From the NCBI GenBank assembly GCA_016650125.1, contig JAENWT010000008.1:62001-126000 (forward strand): a stretch of 64,000 nucleotides of DNA, given 5' to 3'. The first letter of the stretch is position 1; every line of letters begins with the position of its first letter. Below, in pieces: positions 22,250 to 47,090 of this stretch. Position numbers and translations under genes: made by a program. This stretch comes from Thermoleophilia bacterium. GTDB lineage: Bacteria; Actinomycetota; Thermoleophilia; Solirubrobacterales; 70-9. Below the pieces are notes generated by a model. It was not told the origin of the DNA, ran no database searches, and saw only the letters and a list, made by a program, of their open reading frames with translations.

Positions 22250-22302
22250 GAAGCCAGATTAGTCCGCCTGTCTCCGCTATCCGTTAACCTTCTACCCGAG
22301 TT

Positions 22303-22320
22303 ATTGACTGACTGGTCAAT
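22303..22320. promoter_or_regulatory. candidate operator TTGAC-N6-GTCAA before acyl-CoA dehydrogenase
   Basis: ATTGAC and GTCAAT are perfect 6-base inverted arms separated by TGACTG. The site ends 68 bases before the acyl-CoA dehydrogenase start. The same architecture and spacing occurs at 44968-44985 before the beta-oxidation fusion gene. TetR-type fatty-acid repressors often bind such sites. Confidence 0.5.
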
Positions 22321-22388: not shown

Positions 22389-23537
22389 GTGGTTGACTTC
22401 ACGCTTACTGACGAGCAGAAAGACCTGCGCGAGATGGCGCACAATTTCGCCGACAAAGAGATGCGCAGCGTTGCCTGGGAGTACGACAAGGACGGCACGT
22501 GGCCCCAGGAAGTGATTGACAAGGCCTGGGAAGTCGGCCTGATGAACACCCACATTCCCGAGGAATACGGCGGACCCGGACTGGATTACCTGTCCGGCTG
22601 CCTGATCGAAGAGGAGTTCGGCTGGGGCTGCTCCGGCATCGGCACCTCTCTCGCCTGCAACGGCCTCGCTACGGCTCCGGTCGCCCTCGGCGGCTCCGAG
22701 GAGACCAAGAAGAAGTACCTCGGCATGCTGACCGAATCTGCCAAGCTCGCCTCCTTCTGCCTGACCGAGCCGGACGCCGGCTCCGACGTCGCGGGCATGA
22801 AGACCCGCGCCGTGAAGAAGGGCGACAAGTACGTCATCAACGGCTCGAAGTGCTTCATCACCAACGGTCAGTACGCCGACTGGTTCACCGTCTACGCCAA
22901 GACCGATCCCGAGTCTGGCAGCAAGGGCATCTCGGCCTTCGTGGTCGACAAGCAGGACGGCGTCACCATCGACAAGAAGGAAGACAAGATGGGTCAGCGG
23001 GCCTCCAACACCGCGACCGTCTCCTTCAACGACGTCGAGGTCCCGGCCGGGAACCTGATCGGTGAAGAGAACCACGGCTTCAAGCTGGCGATGATGACCC
23101 TCGACCGCACCCGTCCCGGTGTGGCCGCGATGGCCGTCGGTATCGCCCGCGCCGCGTTCGAAGCCGCTGTCACCTACTCCAAGGAGCGCCAGCAGTTCGG
23201 CGTGCCGATCGCGATGCATCAGGCGATCCAGTTCCTGATCGCCGACATGGCGGTCAAGGTCGACGCCGCCCGCCTGCTCACCTGGCACTCGGGCGTCCAG
23301 CTCGACCAGGGCCTGAGCAACACGCTCACCTCCTCCGAGGCCAAGCGTTTCGCCGCTGACTCGGCGATGGAAGTCACCACTGATGCCGTCCAGGTCTACG
23401 GTGGCTACGGCTTCATCAAGGATTACCCGGTGGAGAAGTTCATGCGTGACGCGAAGATCATGCAGCTCTACGAAGGCACCTCCCAAATTCAGCGCATGGT
23501 TATCGCAAGAGAAGTACTGATGCCGCGTAGCGTCTAG
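22389..23537 (+). CDS. acyl-CoA dehydrogenase
   Basis: The 382-residue protein is a full-length FAD-dependent acyl-CoA dehydrogenase that makes the first double bond in beta-oxidation. FAD and substrate motifs ASFCLTEPDAGSDVAG (near residue 120) and TNGQYADWFTVYAKT are present. The C-terminal QLYEGTSQIQRMVIAREVL contains the catalytic Glu of the YEGT motif. Start is GTG, eight bases after AAGGAG at 22375-22380. It is flanked by a candidate operator and an intrinsic terminator, so it is transcribed alone. Chain-length preference is not readable. Confidence 0.92.
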   Translation: MVDFTLTDEQKDLREMAHNFADKEMRSVAWEYDKDGTWPQEVIDKAWEVGLMNTHIPEEYGGPGLDYLSGCLIEEEFGWGCSGIGTSLACNGLATAPVALGGSEETKKKYLGMLTESAKLASFCLTEPDAGSDVAGMKTRAVKKGDKYVINGSKCFITNGQYADWFTVYAKTDPESGSKGISAFVVDKQDGVTIDKKEDKMGQRASNTATVSFNDVEVPAGNLIGEENHGFKLAMMTLDRTRPGVAAMAVGIARAAFEAAVTYSKERQQFGVPIAMHQAIQFLIADMAVKVDAARLLTWHSGVQLDQGLSNTLTSSEAKRFAADSAMEVTTDAVQVYGGYGFIKDYPVEKFMRDAKIMQLYEGTSQIQRMVIAREVLMPRSV

Positions 23538-23563
23538 CTGACTTGCGGCAGACTGCTACTTCG

Positions 23564-23594
23564 AAAGGGCGCCCACCTGGCGCCCTTTCTCGTT
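23564..23594 (+). terminator. intrinsic terminator after acyl-CoA dehydrogenase
   Basis: AAAGGGCGCC (23564-23573) and GGCGCCCTTT (23579-23588) form a perfect 10-bp stem with a 5-base loop, followed by CTCGTT. The same CTTTCTCGTT tail follows the stem at 47060-47090. Confidence 0.85.
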
Positions 23595-24249
23595 AAGCCC
23601 TGAGGTGGCGGGCGGCGCCCGGGAACGTCCTGGACGCGCCTTGACTTCGTCGACACTCGCTCGGCTTGCTCATTGACAGATGTCAAATCGCTTCACCGGC
23701 TCGCTTACTCCTCGCCAGCCACGCCCAGGACGTCCCCGGACACCACCACTTACGTTCTTTGAAAGGTCCAGCCGCGAAAGCCCGCAAAGAAGGAAGTGAT
23801 CGGAATTACAACGGATATACCGTCGTAATCCCGATCGGTATCGGTGCTGAGCTCGAAGTAACCTGGATCGAGGCCACCTCACGGCCCTTATCCCGGTCAC
23901 TTCGCGGATAAAGACGAGCAACAGCAGCTATTTGGACTTCCGCATCGCCGTGTAGGCCGTACCGGGGTAGCCCGGTAAAGACATGGTCAGCTAGTCGAGA
24001 CATCGAAGTTGGTTTTACGACCGTGTTCCGAACGCAGACTGATTTCGGAAATACCAACTTTGATGCACTTGTTCAGAACTGTGACCTCTGTGAGAGGGCA
24101 AAAACTTCGGGATTGTTCTCCTGATCCGATTTTGCCCGCCATCACGGTAGGCCGATCCATTGGCGGTGCGCCAAAAAAGATTGTGTAAAGCCGAAACTTC
24201 GGTGGTGGGTGGGGTTCCAATGGTTACCAGTCCTCGACGAAGGGATCAG
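23595..24249. other. 655-bp stretch without a recognisable gene
   Basis: This stretch is richer in A and T than its surroundings. Short open frames are present, but none resembles a protein family or shows the usual codon bias. It holds three inverted repeats: TTGACA-GA-TGTCAA (23673-23686), ACCGGG-GTAG-CCCGGT (23961-23976), and GGGCAAAA with TTTTGCCC (24096-24103 and 24130-24137). The last 100 bases must contain the promoter of the DUF6351 gene. It could also hold a decayed gene or a small RNA. Confidence 0.5.
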
Positions 24250-27036
24250 ATGAGTACCACCGCCACCCGATTTTCGACCGCGATCAGTCTCGTGTTCGTC
24301 GTCTTGGCTGGACTCTTCGTGATCGGCACTCAGCAGGCCTCGGCTTCGGGTGAAGTCGAACTGGACGTCGTTTCGTCGCGGGCCGACATGGCCAGTGGTG
24401 GCAGCAGCCTGGTTCAGGCCGTGGTCCCTCCCTCAGGCGATTCGGCCGCGCTCACCGTGGCGCTCGACGGCAATGACGTGACTCCGAACTTCCAGGCCGT
24501 TCCGGGCAACGAGCGCAAGCTGCGGGCCCTGCTCGACCTCTCCGGCGGCGGAACGGTCACGGCGACGCTGCCGGGCCACACCACGGCGAAGCTCCTGATC
24601 GTCGACCACTCGGTCAACGGACCGATCCTCTCAGGTGTTCGCCAGACCCCGTTCGTCTGCGAGACCCCTGGCGGCGCGATCAGCCCCAGCGACTGCAATA
24701 CGACGATCAAGGTCGAATACCGATATCGCCTCGCTTCCGGGGGAGGGTGGGTCACGGTGAGCAGCCCCGCCCAGATTCCGGACGCCACTCTTCTGAAGAT
24801 CACCACGACCGTTCCGACCGGCGACCGGCCGAACGGCGAAGTGGTTCCGCAGGCGATCCGGGTCGAGACCGGAACGGTCAACCGGGCGAATTACAAGATC
24901 GGCTTCCTGATCGACCCGGCCAATCCGAGCGTTCCCGGGATCGGCTGGAACGGCCGGCTGATCTATGGCTTCGGTGGCGGCTGCACCGGCGGCTTCGTCC
25001 AGGGACCGGCGGGCAACGACAACAACTTCCTGCGCCTCCCGGACGTACTCGGCGGCTACGCGACGGCCGGCTCCTCGCAGAACGTCTTCGGCACTCGGTG
25101 CTCGGACTCGGTCTCGGCCGAAACCGTCTCGATGGTCAAGGAACACTTCATCGAGGCCTTCGGCCAGCCGGACTTCGTCCTCGGCAAGGGCGGCTCGGGA
25201 GGCGCCATGGCGCAACAGATGATCGGCGACAACTTCCCCGGTCTGCTCGACGGCCTGCAGATCAGCAATTCGTTCACCGACAACGCCTTTCCCGGCAACC
25301 AGCTGATGGACTGCCGGTTGATCAACGAGTTCCTCGCCTCGCCCGAAGCGGCCGGCTGGACCACCGAGCAGAAGCGGGCGGTCAAGGGTCTGGCCCGCGA
25401 GACGGCCTGCGCCGTCGTTTACGCGGCCTTCGGCGAGAACTTCTTCGACCCCGGAGGATCCTGCCCGCCGGAGCTCGCGGCGAACACAGTCTTCGACCCC
25501 AACACCAATCCCGGTGGCACCCGCTGCCTGGTCTACGACGGCAACGTCAATGTCTACGGCAAGGAGGGCGACGGCCTCACCCGCCGGCCGGTCGACAACG
25601 TCGGTGTGCAGTTCGGATTGGAACCGCTCAGGAGCGGAGTGATCACGGTTGACCAGTTCCTCGACCTCAACGACGGCGTCGGCGGCATCCGGCAGTACGA
25701 CGGCGTGTCGGTCCCGGCCCGCTCGACCGCGACGACCGAAGCACTCCGCCGGGCCTACGACAGCGGTCAGCTGAATGAAGGCGGTGCCGGCCTCGCCAGC
25801 ACCCCGATCATCGACAACCGGAACTACAGCATCGAAACCATGGACAACGGCCACCAGATCATCCACGCGCTCTCGATGCGCGAGCGCCTGCTGAAGGCCA
25901 ACGGAGATCCGGACGGGAACGGTTCGGCCGGCACCCAGGTCATCTGGACGAGCCCGCAGAGCCTCGACGACTCCCTCCAGCTGTTGACCATGGACCGCTG
26001 GCTGACCGGTATCGAGAACGACACCTCCTCCGTCTCGAAACGCGAGAAGGTGCTGAACAACCGGCCGGAGACCATCAGTGGCTCACCGGCGGCGCAGGAC
26101 GCCTGTTTCTCGAACGACACCGGCAGCCTGATCGCGCAGCAGACCCAGACTGACGACTCCGGCACCTGCGGCACCACGTTCCCCTCGTCGTCAGGTCCAC
26201 GGATCGAAGCCGGCCAGCCGCTGGCGAACGACATCCTCAAGTGCCAGCTGAAGCCGATCGACCAGTCCGAATACGGCGTGGCCCTGACCGGTCCCCAGCT
26301 CGCCCGCCTGCAGACGATCTTCCCGCAGGGCATCTGCGACAACTCCAAGCCCGGGATCGAGCAGCAGATCAGCCACAAGACCTGGCGGGCCCTGCCGACC
26401 AGCGCGACTCCGGACACGACCGCGCCCGACACCGCGATCTCGTCATCGCTCAGGAAGCGAGGACAGTCCGGCCGGGTGAAGCTGCTCTTCACTTCGTCCC
26501 AGACCGGGTCGAGTTACGAGTGCCGTTTCGACTCGGCCGCGTTCACCGCCTGCGTTTCGCCGCTCGAGCGCAGCACCCTGCCAGTCGGTTACCACTCGTT
26601 CGACGTGCGCGCGACCGACATCGCCGGCAACACCGATCCCTCGCCGGCCCGGGCCGGATTCATCGTCGGCTATCCGAAGGCCCTGCTCGGAACCCGTTCG
26701 AGGCTGATCAAGTTCAACCGCCGGGGCCGCGGCTATGCCAAGGTCCGCTGCACCCTGACCGGCATGAAGTCCTGTTACGGGCGAGCCACGCTCTCGGTCA
26801 AGGGCCGCGTGTTCGGGGCCCGGAAGAAGGCCGGGAAGAAGGACCGCCGCGTCACGACCCGCAAGTACAAGGTCAAGGCGGGAGCGCGGGCGATCAAGCT
26901 CAAGCTGAACGGACGGACCCGGCGCAAGCTCCGGCAGAAGGGCCATTTGCGAGCAAAGATCGTCTTCACGGTCGGCCAGGCGGGCACCAGTCCGAAGCGG
27001 GTCACACGCATCGTCAGGTTGACTGATACGCGGTGA
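24250..27036 (+). CDS. secreted DUF6351-family protein with Ig-like and basic C-terminal parts
   Basis: The 928-residue protein has a signal peptide (residues 1-38, ending near QQASASGEVEL). A large DUF6351 region follows to about residue 715. There GKGGSGGAMAQQM near residue 315 provides a GxSxG-like nucleophile elbow, suggesting a tannase-like alpha/beta hydrolase. Residues about 725-800 form a small domain ending in FDVRATDIAGNTDPSP with paired Cys. The last 120 residues are Lys/Arg-rich. I chose ATG 24250 because GAAGGGA precedes it and the signal peptide then begins normally. The substrate is unknown. Confidence 0.8.
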   Translation: MSTTATRFSTAISLVFVVLAGLFVIGTQQASASGEVELDVVSSRADMASGGSSLVQAVVPPSGDSAALTVALDGNDVTPNFQAVPGNERKLRALLDLSGGGTVTATLPGHTTAKLLIVDHSVNGPILSGVRQTPFVCETPGGAISPSDCNTTIKVEYRYRLASGGGWVTVSSPAQIPDATLLKITTTVPTGDRPNGEVVPQAIRVETGTVNRANYKIGFLIDPANPSVPGIGWNGRLIYGFGGGCTGGFVQGPAGNDNNFLRLPDVLGGYATAGSSQNVFGTRCSDSVSAETVSMVKEHFIEAFGQPDFVLGKGGSGGAMAQQMIGDNFPGLLDGLQISNSFTDNAFPGNQLMDCRLINEFLASPEAAGWTTEQKRAVKGLARETACAVVYAAFGENFFDPGGSCPPELAANTVFDPNTNPGGTRCLVYDGNVNVYGKEGDGLTRRPVDNVGVQFGLEPLRSGVITVDQFLDLNDGVGGIRQYDGVSVPARSTATTEALRRAYDSGQLNEGGAGLASTPIIDNRNYSIETMDNGHQIIHALSMRERLLKANGDPDGNGSAGTQVIWTSPQSLDDSLQLLTMDRWLTGIENDTSSVSKREKVLNNRPETISGSPAAQDACFSNDTGSLIAQQTQTDDSGTCGTTFPSSSGPRIEAGQPLANDILKCQLKPIDQSEYGVALTGPQLARLQTIFPQGICDNSKPGIEQQISHKTWRALPTSATPDTTAPDTAISSSLRKRGQSGRVKLLFTSSQTGSSYECRFDSAAFTACVSPLERSTLPVGYHSFDVRATDIAGNTDPSPARAGFIVGYPKALLGTRSRLIKFNRRGRGYAKVRCTLTGMKSCYGRATLSVKGRVFGARKKAGKKDRRVTTRKYKVKAGARAIKLKLNGRTRRKLRQKGHLRAKIVFTVGQAGTSPKRVTRIVRLTDTR

Positions 27037-44767: not shown

Positions 44768-44967
44768 GATGTTCAACTTCCTGTGAGGGGTGTGGGGAGA
44801 TCCAGTAACCCCGAAAACCTTGCGGTGCAGGAAGGAACAGAACCTCGATGGATACCCGTCGGGGGGATCCAACGTCACCCAAGGTAGCAGGAACACCGAA
44901 CGGTCAAGCGGAGGCCGGTCACAGATGACTGCGGCGAACCCACGATCAGCCGAGGGTCCATACACTT

Positions 44968-44985
44968 GTTGACCCGCGAGTCAAC
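44968..44985. promoter_or_regulatory. candidate operator TTGAC-N6-GTCAA before the beta-oxidation fusion gene
   Basis: GTTGAC and GTCAAC are perfect 6-base inverted arms around CCGCGA. The spacing and core match the site at 22303-22320 before the acyl-CoA dehydrogenase. It ends 48 bases before the start of the fusion gene and also lies upstream of the divergent helicase. Confidence 0.55.
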
Positions 44986-45033: not shown

Positions 45034-47037
45034 ATGTTCGTACACAAGGCCGCCGTAGTCGGCGGCGGCACCATGGGTGGTCAGATCGCACAGGCAATCG
45101 CCGCGTCTGACACCCCCGTCGTCATCAAGGACGTCGATCAGAAATTCGTCGACCACGCAATCGAAGAGGTCCGCAATGTCACTTCGGGCCAGCTCGGTGG
45201 GCTGGTCAAGAAGGAGAAGCTGACCCAGGAGCAGGCGGACGCCCGCCTCGCCGAGGTCATGGGTCTCGTCACCGGGACCACGTCTTACGACGAGTTCGGT
45301 GACGTCGACTTCGTGATCGAAGCCGTGCCCGAGAAGATGGCGATCAAGCAGGCGGTATTCGCCGAGCTCGACGCGGTCACTCCCGGCCACGCGATCCTCT
45401 CGTCCAACACCTCCGGTCTCTCGATCTCCGAGATGGCCGAAGCCACGATCCGCCCGGACAAGGTCGTCGGATTCCACTTCTTCTACCCGGCGTCGGTCAT
45501 GCCGCTGGTCGAGGTCATCATCGGTGACGAGACCACTTCGGAGACCGTGCAGTCCGCCTCGAATTTCGCCCAGGCCATCGGCAAGCAGCCGATCACCTGC
45601 GGTGAGGTCCCCGGCTTCGTGGTCAACCGCATCCTGAACTCCGCGGTCAGCGAGATCTGGCGTGCACAGGAAGAGCAGAGCCTCTCGATCGCCAAGATCG
45701 ACGAAGGTGTCGGCGCTGCGAACGTCGCCCCGATGGGCCCGTTCATCCTCGCCGACATGCTCGGACTCGACACCGTGTTCCACGTCGCCGAAAACCTGCA
45801 GGACGCTTACGGCGACTCCTTCTACGTCCACCAGGGCATGAAGAAGCTCGTTTCCGAAGGCAAGCTCGGAGCCAAGACCGGTGGTGACGGCCTCTACAAG
45901 GACGGCGTCGCGCAGGTTGAAGGCGACAACGACGCCGACGCCCAGGAACTGGCCGACCTCTTCACCGCCAAAGCGCTGATCGAGGCCTGTCTGCTGCTCG
46001 AGGAAGGTGTCGCTTCGGTTCGTGACATCGACGTAGGCATGATGGCCGGCGCCGGTCTCGACCCCCGCCGCGGACTCTTCCCGCCGTTCTGGAAGGCCGA
46101 CATCGACGGGCTCGACAAGGCGCTCGAGAAAATCGAGGCCCTGCACGAGAAGCACGGCGACCGTTTCGCCCCGCCGGTCACGCTCAAGCGCCTGGTCGCC
46201 CAGGGTCGTTTCGGCTTCGCTTCCGGTCAGGGTTTCTACCCGTGGCCGCAGCCCGACGAAGGCGATCAGCCGGAGAAGGTCAAGCTCGAGACCCGCGGCA
46301 CCGTCGCGATCGCCTGGCTAACCAACCCGCCGATGAACGCGATCGCCCCTCAGGTGATCGAGGACCTCGGCACCGTCTGGGAGAAGGTCAAGGCGAACAA
46401 GGAAATCGGCGCCATGATCATCGCCTCGTCGATGCCGATCGTTTATTCGGCCGGCGCTGACATCAAGAAATTCACCCAGATGGACACCGAGGGTGGAGCC
46501 GCGCTGATCAACGACGGTCACGAGCTGCTGAGGGACTTCGGCAAGGACCGTGTCGTCACGATTGCCGCCGTCAACTCGCTCGCCTTCGGCGGCGGCTGCG
46601 AGCTGGCCATGGCCTGTGACTTCCGGATCGCGGCCGAGTCGGCCGTCTTCGGGCAGCCTGAGATCAAGCTCGGGATCATCCCCGGGTTCGGCGGGACGCA
46701 GCGTCTGCCGCGTCTGGTCGGAGGCAACAAGGCCCTCGAGATGAATCTGGTCGGAGATCCGATCTCCTCGCTCGAAGCCCTCGAGTACGGCCTCGTCACC
46801 CGGGTCGTCCCGGACCAGGAGCTGTTCGACACGGCGCTCAACTGGGGAGTCCGGCTCGCCGGCCAGGCCCCGATCGCAGTCGAGCAGGTCAAGAAGGTCC
46901 AGTTCATGGGCGGCGATCCCGACGCGGGCATCGATGCTGAGAAGCAGGGTTTTGCGACCGCGTTCCTGACCGAGGATGCCAAGGAAGGCATCAGCGCGTT
47001 CCTCGGTAAGCGCAGCCCGAAGTGGAGCGGTAAGTAG
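45034..47037 (+). CDS. 3-hydroxyacyl-CoA dehydrogenase / enoyl-CoA hydratase fusion
   Basis: The 667-residue protein combines two steps of beta-oxidation. Residues about 1-385 are the dehydrogenase: AAVVGGGTMGGQIAQAIA (NAD fold), SNTSGLSISEMAEATIRPDK, and GEVPGFVVNRILNSAVSEIW. Residues about 410-667 are a crotonase domain: IVYSAGADIKKFTQM, AFGGGCELAMACDFRIAAES and QPEIKLGIIPGFGGTQRLP, with both catalytic Glu. This order is the reverse of E. coli FadB, where the hydratase comes first. It is preceded by a fatty-acid-type operator and followed by a strong terminator, so it is transcribed alone. Confidence 0.9.
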   Translation: MFVHKAAVVGGGTMGGQIAQAIAASDTPVVIKDVDQKFVDHAIEEVRNVTSGQLGGLVKKEKLTQEQADARLAEVMGLVTGTTSYDEFGDVDFVIEAVPEKMAIKQAVFAELDAVTPGHAILSSNTSGLSISEMAEATIRPDKVVGFHFFYPASVMPLVEVIIGDETTSETVQSASNFAQAIGKQPITCGEVPGFVVNRILNSAVSEIWRAQEEQSLSIAKIDEGVGAANVAPMGPFILADMLGLDTVFHVAENLQDAYGDSFYVHQGMKKLVSEGKLGAKTGGDGLYKDGVAQVEGDNDADAQELADLFTAKALIEACLLLEEGVASVRDIDVGMMAGAGLDPRRGLFPPFWKADIDGLDKALEKIEALHEKHGDRFAPPVTLKRLVAQGRFGFASGQGFYPWPQPDEGDQPEKVKLETRGTVAIAWLTNPPMNAIAPQVIEDLGTVWEKVKANKEIGAMIIASSMPIVYSAGADIKKFTQMDTEGGAALINDGHELLRDFGKDRVVTIAAVNSLAFGGGCELAMACDFRIAAESAVFGQPEIKLGIIPGFGGTQRLPRLVGGNKALEMNLVGDPISSLEALEYGLVTRVVPDQELFDTALNWGVRLAGQAPIAVEQVKKVQFMGGDPDAGIDAEKQGFATAFLTEDAKEGISAFLGKRSPKWSGK

Positions 47038-47059
47038 CCCTCGACTCATAGAAGCACCG

Positions 47060-47090
47060 AAAGGGCGGCCGCTGGCCGCCCTTTCTCGTT
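47060..47090 (+). terminator. intrinsic terminator of the beta-oxidation fusion gene
   Basis: AAAGGGCGGCC (47060-47070) and GGCCGCCCTTT (47074-47084) form an 11-bp stem with a GCT loop, followed by CTCGTT. Both the stem style and the CTTTCTCGTT tail match the terminator at 23564-23594. Confidence 0.87.

What the first reader, a model, noticed from the sequence alone, without database searches (positions are those of the whole stretch)
22303..22320. Shared operator before two distant beta-oxidation genes
TTGAC-N6-GTCAA occurs 68 bases before the acyl-CoA dehydrogenase (22303-22320) and 48 bases before the dehydrogenase/hydratase fusion (44968-44985). Their flanking bases also pair (A-T and G-C), and both genes end in the same type of terminator. 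This looks like a fatty-acid-degradation regulon with one repressor, which is not encoded in the window.
Basis: partly seen in the sequence, partly recalled or inferred. Interest (0 to 1): 0.55.

Follow-up and report, generated by a model that had tools for sequence, protein, structure and literature searches.

The report
Fat-burning gene switch in Solirubrobacterales
Two fat-breakdown genes in this actinobacterium carry the same short DNA switch, which also sits before other fat-burning genes in this genome and its relatives, and a likely repressor that works it can be named, so a familiar kind of switch is now mapped in a poorly studied group.

Summary
Confirmed and extended. TTGAC-N6-GTCAA lies at 22304-22319 and 44969-44984 (2 seen, 0.04 expected). 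The genome (2.83 Mb, by inference order Solirubrobacterales) has 9 exact copies. The 5 that fit TTGACY-N4-RGTCAA all precede beta-oxidation genes: etfBA, thiolase, the window's acyl-CoA dehydrogenase, its dehydrogenase/hydratase fusion, and a second acyl-CoA dehydrogenase. In 40 relatives the refined motif occurs 135 times against 7 for the reversed pattern; 87 of 135 lie before similar genes or the regulator's operon. It is most likely a 199-residue TetR on contig C23, encoded after a CN-hydrolase gene. Its closest known relative is Bacillus FadR, but it fails the FadR equivalog cut-off. Named loci carry a site upstream in 58 of 75, against 0 of 75 downstream controls. All 33 genomes with the regulator have exact regulon sites; none of the five genomes of one family without it has; three further genomes without it do. 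Most likely mechanism: acyl-CoA-relieved repression at the promoter. Binding, direction and ligand are inferred. New member of a known kind.

The parts
22303..22320 (.). Operator ATTGACTGACTGGTCAAT before the acyl-CoA dehydrogenase gene
   Evidence: same element before ACAD1-like genes of relatives
22285..22290 (+). Possible -10 element TAACCT, 13 bases before the core of the operator (inferred)
   Evidence: lined up by eye with TACCCT in ACAD promoters of genus members; no transcription start was measured
22389..23537 (+). Acyl-CoA dehydrogenase, 382 aa, GTG start
   Evidence: Pfam and NCBIfam
23563..23589 (+). Terminator-like hairpin GAAAGGGCGCCCACCTGGCGCCCTTTC then TCGTT
44961..44966 (+). 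Possible -10 element TACACT, two bases before the core of the operator (inferred)
   Evidence: lined up by eye with TAGCCT/TACCCT in fusion promoters of genus members
44968..44985 (.). Operator GTTGACCCGCGAGTCAAC before the fusion gene
   Evidence: exact in 10 and 9/10 in 1 of 14 anchored members of the genus, own genome included; absent in 3
45034..47037 (+). 3-hydroxyacyl-CoA dehydrogenase / enoyl-CoA hydratase fusion, 667 aa, dehydrogenase first
   Evidence: Pfam 3HCDH_N 5-191, 3HCDH 194-284, ECH_1 420-666
47059..47085 (+). Terminator-like hairpin GAAAGGGCGGCCGCTGGCCGCCCTTTC then TCGTT

Best explanation
The two palindromes are operators of one beta-oxidation regulon. The regulator is most likely the 199-residue TetR protein encoded outside the window (G000 C23:32783-33379), directly behind a carbon-nitrogen hydrolase gene. 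A dimer would bind (A/G)TTGACT(G/C)RY(C/G)AGTCAA(T/C), lying on or next to the core promoter, and keep etfBA, thiolase, two acyl-CoA dehydrogenases, the dehydrogenase/hydratase fusion and its own operon off. Long-chain acyl-CoA would release it when fatty acids are available. Shown by computation: the sites, their conservation, their place before these genes and before the regulator's operon, the presence/absence pattern and the FadR-like fold. Inferred: binding, direction (repression), ligand and promoter positions.
For: Own genome: 9 exact sites; 5 lie before etfB, thiolase, ACAD1, fusion and ACAD2, the start codon 83, 72, 70, 50 and 42 positions from the 16-mer. Relatives: 135 sites of TTGACY-N4-RGTCAA in 40 genomes against 7 for the reversed control. 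87 of 135 lie before genes at least 40% identical to the own-genome ones: ACAD1 25, ETFB 23, thiolase 13, fusion 10, CN hydrolase 9, ACAD2 6, fadR 1; the ACAD2 group is only 46-51% identical and one thiolase 42%. Regulator operon: a site of at least 9/10 within 1300 nt upstream in 27 of 29 parsed loci, own included, and in 58 of 75 named loci (38 exact) against 0 of 75 downstream stretches (the two sets share genomes, and two counted loci, L268 and L326, have a hit at an odd place). The own genome has TTGACCCGTCAATCAA, 9/10, before the hydrolase-TetR pair. Presence/absence: all 33 genomes with the regulator (own and 32 relatives) have at least one exact regulon site; none of the five f4 genomes without it has. 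In a sister family of the class the homologue (41-44% identity) has a 9/10 site about 20 nt before the start of the match, and acyl-CoA dehydrogenase genes a few kb away carry an exact site (2 of 2 genomes). Of the ten best Foldseek hits eight are labelled Bacillus FadR and two are 1vi0, labelled only 'transcriptional regulator'; best PDB sequence hits 3whb/1vi0, E 2e-19; Pfam YsiA-like C-terminal domain over cut-off. TANNNT elements near the operator recur in aligned promoters (by eye).
Against: G023 (99% complete) has sites before ACAD1 and etfB, but neither the TetR nor a close hydrolase was found; G006 and G017 likewise, but these are 75% and 81% complete. 17 of 75 named loci have no site near the gene, nor do L226, L229, G020 and G031. 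G005, G007 and G016 have the regulator but no site before the fusion, nor do G019 and G024; 11 of 27 fusion loci could not be anchored. Of 127 sites with fetched context 30 are unassigned and 18 belong to another motif class. The NCBIfam FadR equivalog cut-off is not met (98 of 200 bits), and TetR_C_29 scores slightly above the YsiA-like domain. In the sister family the site near the gene overlaps the longest possible reading frame, so its distance to the true start is unsure. No binding or expression data exist. Counts across related genomes are not independent.
Confidence: 0.85

Rival explanations
1. The regulator is another TetR of the same genome, at C2:180955, whose own promoter carries TAACTGACTGACTGGTCAGTTA with the same inner 14 bases as the window's ACAD operator.
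For: It was the only one of 18 TetR genes with an exact TGAC-N6-GTCA within about 1.5 kb of its DNA-binding domain.
Against: Its homologues have their own conserved, longer operator TAACTGAC-N6-GTCAGTTA (11 of 27 oriented loci; in 10 of these the divergent R2-like gene was recognised). Four genomes with an exact fusion site show no full orthologue: G001, G009, G014, G015, best E 3e-11 to 1e-17; G001 does have a 44-residue fragment at 59% identity with a stop, and G015 is 81% complete. Its operator has CTGAC where the regulon has TTGAC.
Confidence: 0.06
2. The FadR-like TetR binds these sites but answers to another signal (short or branched acyl-CoA, or a product of the neighbouring hydrolase) or also activates, so it is not a long-chain fatty-acid switch.
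For: It fails the FadR equivalog cut-off. The hydrolase partner is a recurrent oddity. Acyl-CoA-binding TetRs with other ligands exist (general knowledge).
Against: Targets are general beta-oxidation and ETF genes, as in Bacillus (PMC4525379, passages) and Thermus (PMC5597230, section 10). Closest fold is Bacillus FadR, also in its stearoyl-CoA complex 3whc.
Confidence: 0.2
3. Chance palindromes near two lipid genes.
For: One-mismatch matches are not clearly more common than chance (4 against 1.0).
Against: The exact motif is far over chance and conserved before the same kinds of genes.
Confidence: 0.01

Closest known systems
Bacillus subtilis FadR (YsiA) regulon
   Same: TetR fold, YsiA-like C-terminal domain, best sequence, family-model and structure match. 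Represses five operons that include etfB-etfA, fadB, fadA, fadE and its own gene (PMC4525379, passages; enzyme roles of the gene names from general knowledge).
   Different: About 26% identity; below the curated FadR cut-off (98 of 200 bits). Operator sequence differs from the Bacillus FadR box (recalled, from no call). The regulator gene follows a CN hydrolase instead of lying in lcfA-fadR-fadB-etfB-etfA.
Thermus thermophilus FadR regulon
   Same: TetR regulator of hydroxyacyl-CoA dehydrogenase, thiolase, ACAD and etfBA operons, with a site before its own operon (PMC5597230, passages and section 10).
   Different: Consensus TTRNACYNRGTNYAA is 15 bases, against 16 here. A weaker structural match (3anp TM 0.68). 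PMC13176608 (passages) puts Thermus and Bacillus FadR in different TetR subfamilies.
Sulfolobus acidocaldarius FadR
   Same: TetR-type fatty-acid regulator with a 16-bp dyad motif (PMC6449355, passages).
   Different: Archaeal; binds only four genomic sites; weaker structural match (6en8 TM 0.70).

Membership tests
Bacillus-type FadR (TetR repressor of beta-oxidation) | TetR_N DNA-binding domain | tested here: met
   66.1 bits, cut-off 24
Bacillus-type FadR (TetR repressor of beta-oxidation) | YsiA-like C-terminal ligand domain (PF08359) | tested here: met
   29.8 bits, cut-off 21; TetR_C_29 also over its cut-off and slightly higher, 30.4 of 26.2
Bacillus-type FadR (TetR repressor of beta-oxidation) | NCBIfam FadR equivalog NF053878 cut-off | tested here: not met
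   best NCBIfam match but 98.1 of 200 bits: FadR-like, not an equivalog
Bacillus-type FadR (TetR repressor of beta-oxidation) | FadR fold | tested here: met
   model of the 86%-identical L263 protein, pLDDT 92.7; ten best PDB hits are chains of Bacillus FadR entries or 1vi0, TM 0.80-0.90
Bacillus-type FadR (TetR repressor of beta-oxidation) | Common operator before beta-oxidation/ETF genes and before its own operon | tested here: met
   (by sequence only; own-genome operon site is 9/10)
Bacillus-type FadR (TetR repressor of beta-oxidation) | Operator sequence of Bacillus FadR | not tested
   the Bacillus box was only recalled; it looks different
Bacillus-type FadR (TetR repressor of beta-oxidation) | Release from DNA by long-chain acyl-CoA | not testable with these tools
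   needs protein
Thermus-type FadR | 15-base operator TTRNACYNRGTNYAA | tested here: not met
   sites here are 16 bases with TTGAC and GTCAA six apart

The most novel reading that the evidence does not exclude
Two TetR repressors in one cell read nested versions of one core (TGAC-N6-GTCA): TTGAC arms for beta-oxidation, TAACTGAC arms for a divergent R2-like oxidase/SCP2 gene. The arms alone would keep two lipid regulons apart or let them cross-talk. The CN hydrolase tied to the FadR-like gene would make or clear its signal.
Probability: 0.12. Interest if true: 0.6.

Novelty: new member of a known kind. Interest (0 to 1): 0.42.

Why it matters
Most of the named loci of this group come from metagenome bins (record titles). 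I saw no such regulon described for it in the listings of my term searches, and two motif strings gave 0 papers; most subscription journals are outside that library. A regulator, its operator and its targets can now be tested directly in cultured Conexibacter or Svornostia, and the operator can help annotate fatty-acid regulation across the order. It also shows that a motif read by eye in raw sequence led to a genome-wide regulon.

Tried and rejected
C2 TetR as regulator: first choice, dropped because its presence does not follow the fusion site and it has its own operator. One search scanned loci without turning those on the minus strand and is superseded. The TetR half failed (wrong anchor, all rows), as did 11 of its 27 fusion loci; these are not counted. 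'GATTGACCCGTCAATC' before the hydrolase was first read as a different palindrome (N2); it fits the N6 motif at 9/10. Terminator likeness was confirmed but not used as evidence for co-regulation. Consensus promoter scans found nothing. Rfam found nothing in the window. The literature search with FdmR led nowhere. Matching BsFadR Arg109 to Arg112 here was considered but left out, because the HMMER alignment does not set them in one column. The TTGACYTTGTAGTCAA class (18 unassigned sites) was set aside as another regulon. Refining the motif to TTGACY-N4-RGTCAA was done after seeing the own-genome sites; the relatives are the separate test. Near-exact sites were not searched in the relatives' genomes at large, only upstream of the regulator gene and the fusion. 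The presence/absence tally was first made by hand and then recounted with the same result.

Full report
1. The observation. Two exact matches to TTGAC-N6-GTCAA were found in 64 kb, against 0.04 expected. Spacing to the start codons, flanking pairs and gene identities are right. The matching terminators are there too.

2. Genome-wide test. The genome has 9 exact copies, against 1 for the reversed pattern. Five lie before a gene start: etfB (83; etfA follows), thiolase (72), window ACAD (70), window fusion (50), and a second ACAD on contig C20 (42). Of the other four, L004 and L005 lie inside long reading frames and L003 and L008 overlap reading frames; L008 is also about 180 nt before a short-chain dehydrogenase gene. 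None of these four fits TTGACY-N4-RGTCAA, which all five do (letters).

3. Conservation. I searched 40 relatives (17 of the genus, 7 of the family, 16 of the order) with TTGACYNNNNRGTCAA: 33 + 66 + 36 = 135 places, against 7 for the reversed pattern. I fetched context for 127 and classified it by similarity, at 40% identity or more, to the own-genome genes; 6 more are fusion sites and 2 are regulator-operon sites. 87 of 135 precede a regulon gene: ACAD1 25, etfB 23, thiolase 13, fusion 10, CN hydrolase 9, ACAD2 6 (46-51% identical only), fadR 1. Of the rest, 18 are of a second class and 30 are unassigned (some at contig ends or inside genes). The consensus of 79 sites is (A/G)TTGACT(G/C)RY(C/G)AGTCAA(T/C).

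4. The regulator. The genome has 18 TetR genes, none on the window's contig. One, on C2, has TGAC-N6-GTCA at its promoter, but its homologues carry a distinct, longer operator and its presence does not follow the regulon. A second, on C23, encodes 199 residues and follows a CN hydrolase whose stop codon overlaps its start. In G022 the exact site is directly before its orthologue; in G019 and G021 it is before the hydrolase. Of 30 loci, 29 were parsed and 27 have a site of at least 9/10 within 1300 nt upstream; the unparsed one (G020) and one further locus (G031) have none. In the named collection (80 best of 305 hits) 58 of 75 loci with at least 900 nt upstream have such a site, 38 of them exact; the same scan downstream gives 0 of 75. 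Record titles of these loci are mostly Solirubrobacterales, Thermoleophilaceae or Conexibacter, and one contig (L265, Solirubrobacterales bacterium 67-14) has the length and position of a contig of G009, a member of the window's genus. From this I infer that the window is of Solirubrobacterales (Actinomycetota).

5. Presence and absence. The orthologue is in 33 of 41 genomes, own included. All 33 have at least one exact site before a regulon gene (own; 32 of 32 relatives). Of the 8 without it, five form one family (f4) and have no assigned site, although they keep the fusion at 52-55% identity and a hydrolase at 48-51%. G006 (75% complete), G017 (81%) and G023 (99%) have 3, 2 and 2 assigned sites without the gene; no close hydrolase was found there either, so a gap at this locus could explain it, but G023 remains unexplained. 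In a draw of 296 genomes of the phylum, with at most ten candidates scored in the genomes listed, the protein was seen at E up to 1e-40 in 10: eight of the order, own included, and two of a sister family of the class. In both sister genomes a 9/10 site lies about 20 nt before the start of the match, and an ACAD gene a few kb away has an exact site.

6. What the regulator is like. The best PDB sequence matches are Bacillus FadR (E 2e-19). Pfam finds TetR_N and the YsiA-like C-terminal domain above their cut-offs. NCBIfam's best is FadR of Bacillus, but at 98 of 200 bits. A confident model of a close orthologue (86% identity; pLDDT 92.7) has Bacillus FadR chains and 1vi0 as its ten best structural hits. 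It works like FadR, as far as sequence can tell; it does not pass the FadR equivalog test.

7. Mechanism. Aligned promoters (by eye) show TANNNT elements near the operator: just upstream in ACAD, fusion and most fadR-operon promoters (operator over or just after the likely start), downstream in thiolase and etf promoters (operator over the -35 or spacer). This suits a repressor that blocks polymerase. By analogy with Bacillus FadR, inhibited by C14-C20 acyl-CoA (PMC4525379, passages), acyl-CoA would induce the regulon. Binding, direction and ligand are inference.

8. Known or new. The architecture (one TetR, beta-oxidation plus ETF, own operon) is known from Bacillus and Thermus. New here are the taxon, the operator sequence and the hydrolase partner. 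Two motif strings gave no paper, and the listings of term searches for such a regulon in this group showed none that describes it. Subscription journals are mostly outside that library.

Noticed in passing
L060:6523-8699 (G000 C2): A TetR gene divergent from an R2-like oxidase with a C-terminal SCP2/alkyl-sulfatase-like domain shares an operator with arms TAACTGAC-N6-GTCAGTTA; 11 of 27 oriented homologue loci keep it. Its core equals that of the beta-oxidation operator.
   Followed up: partly
L378:5509 and 10483 (G009 C7), also G001 C89, G017 C235, G018 C2, G020 C1: Another motif class, around TTGACYTTGTAGTCAA (18 unassigned sites), occurs in several relatives as two copies about 5-10 kb apart. 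In G009 it lies beside genes that look like a Rieske-type oxygenase, an acyl-CoA dehydrogenase and FAD oxidoreductases (read by eye): probably a separate catabolic regulon.
   Followed up: partly
L061:6960-7784 (G000 C23): A CN hydrolase (best NCBIfam match deaminated glutathione amidase, 182 of 500 bits) precedes the FadR-like gene here and, by a crude sequence signature, in many of the named loci; its role in fatty-acid control is unclear.
   Followed up: partly
23798-23836: Long inverted repeat with a 17-pair stem between the ACAD gene and the DUF6351 (tannase-like) gene at 24160-27036, beyond the ACAD terminator.
   Followed up: no
L309, L319, L322: Contigs titled 'Bifidobacterium breve' MAG carry the FadR-like gene at 63-64% identity; the record titles look mislabelled.
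   Followed up: no
G023: 99% complete genome with regulon sites before ACAD1 and etfB but without the FadR-like gene or a close CN hydrolase.
   Followed up: partly
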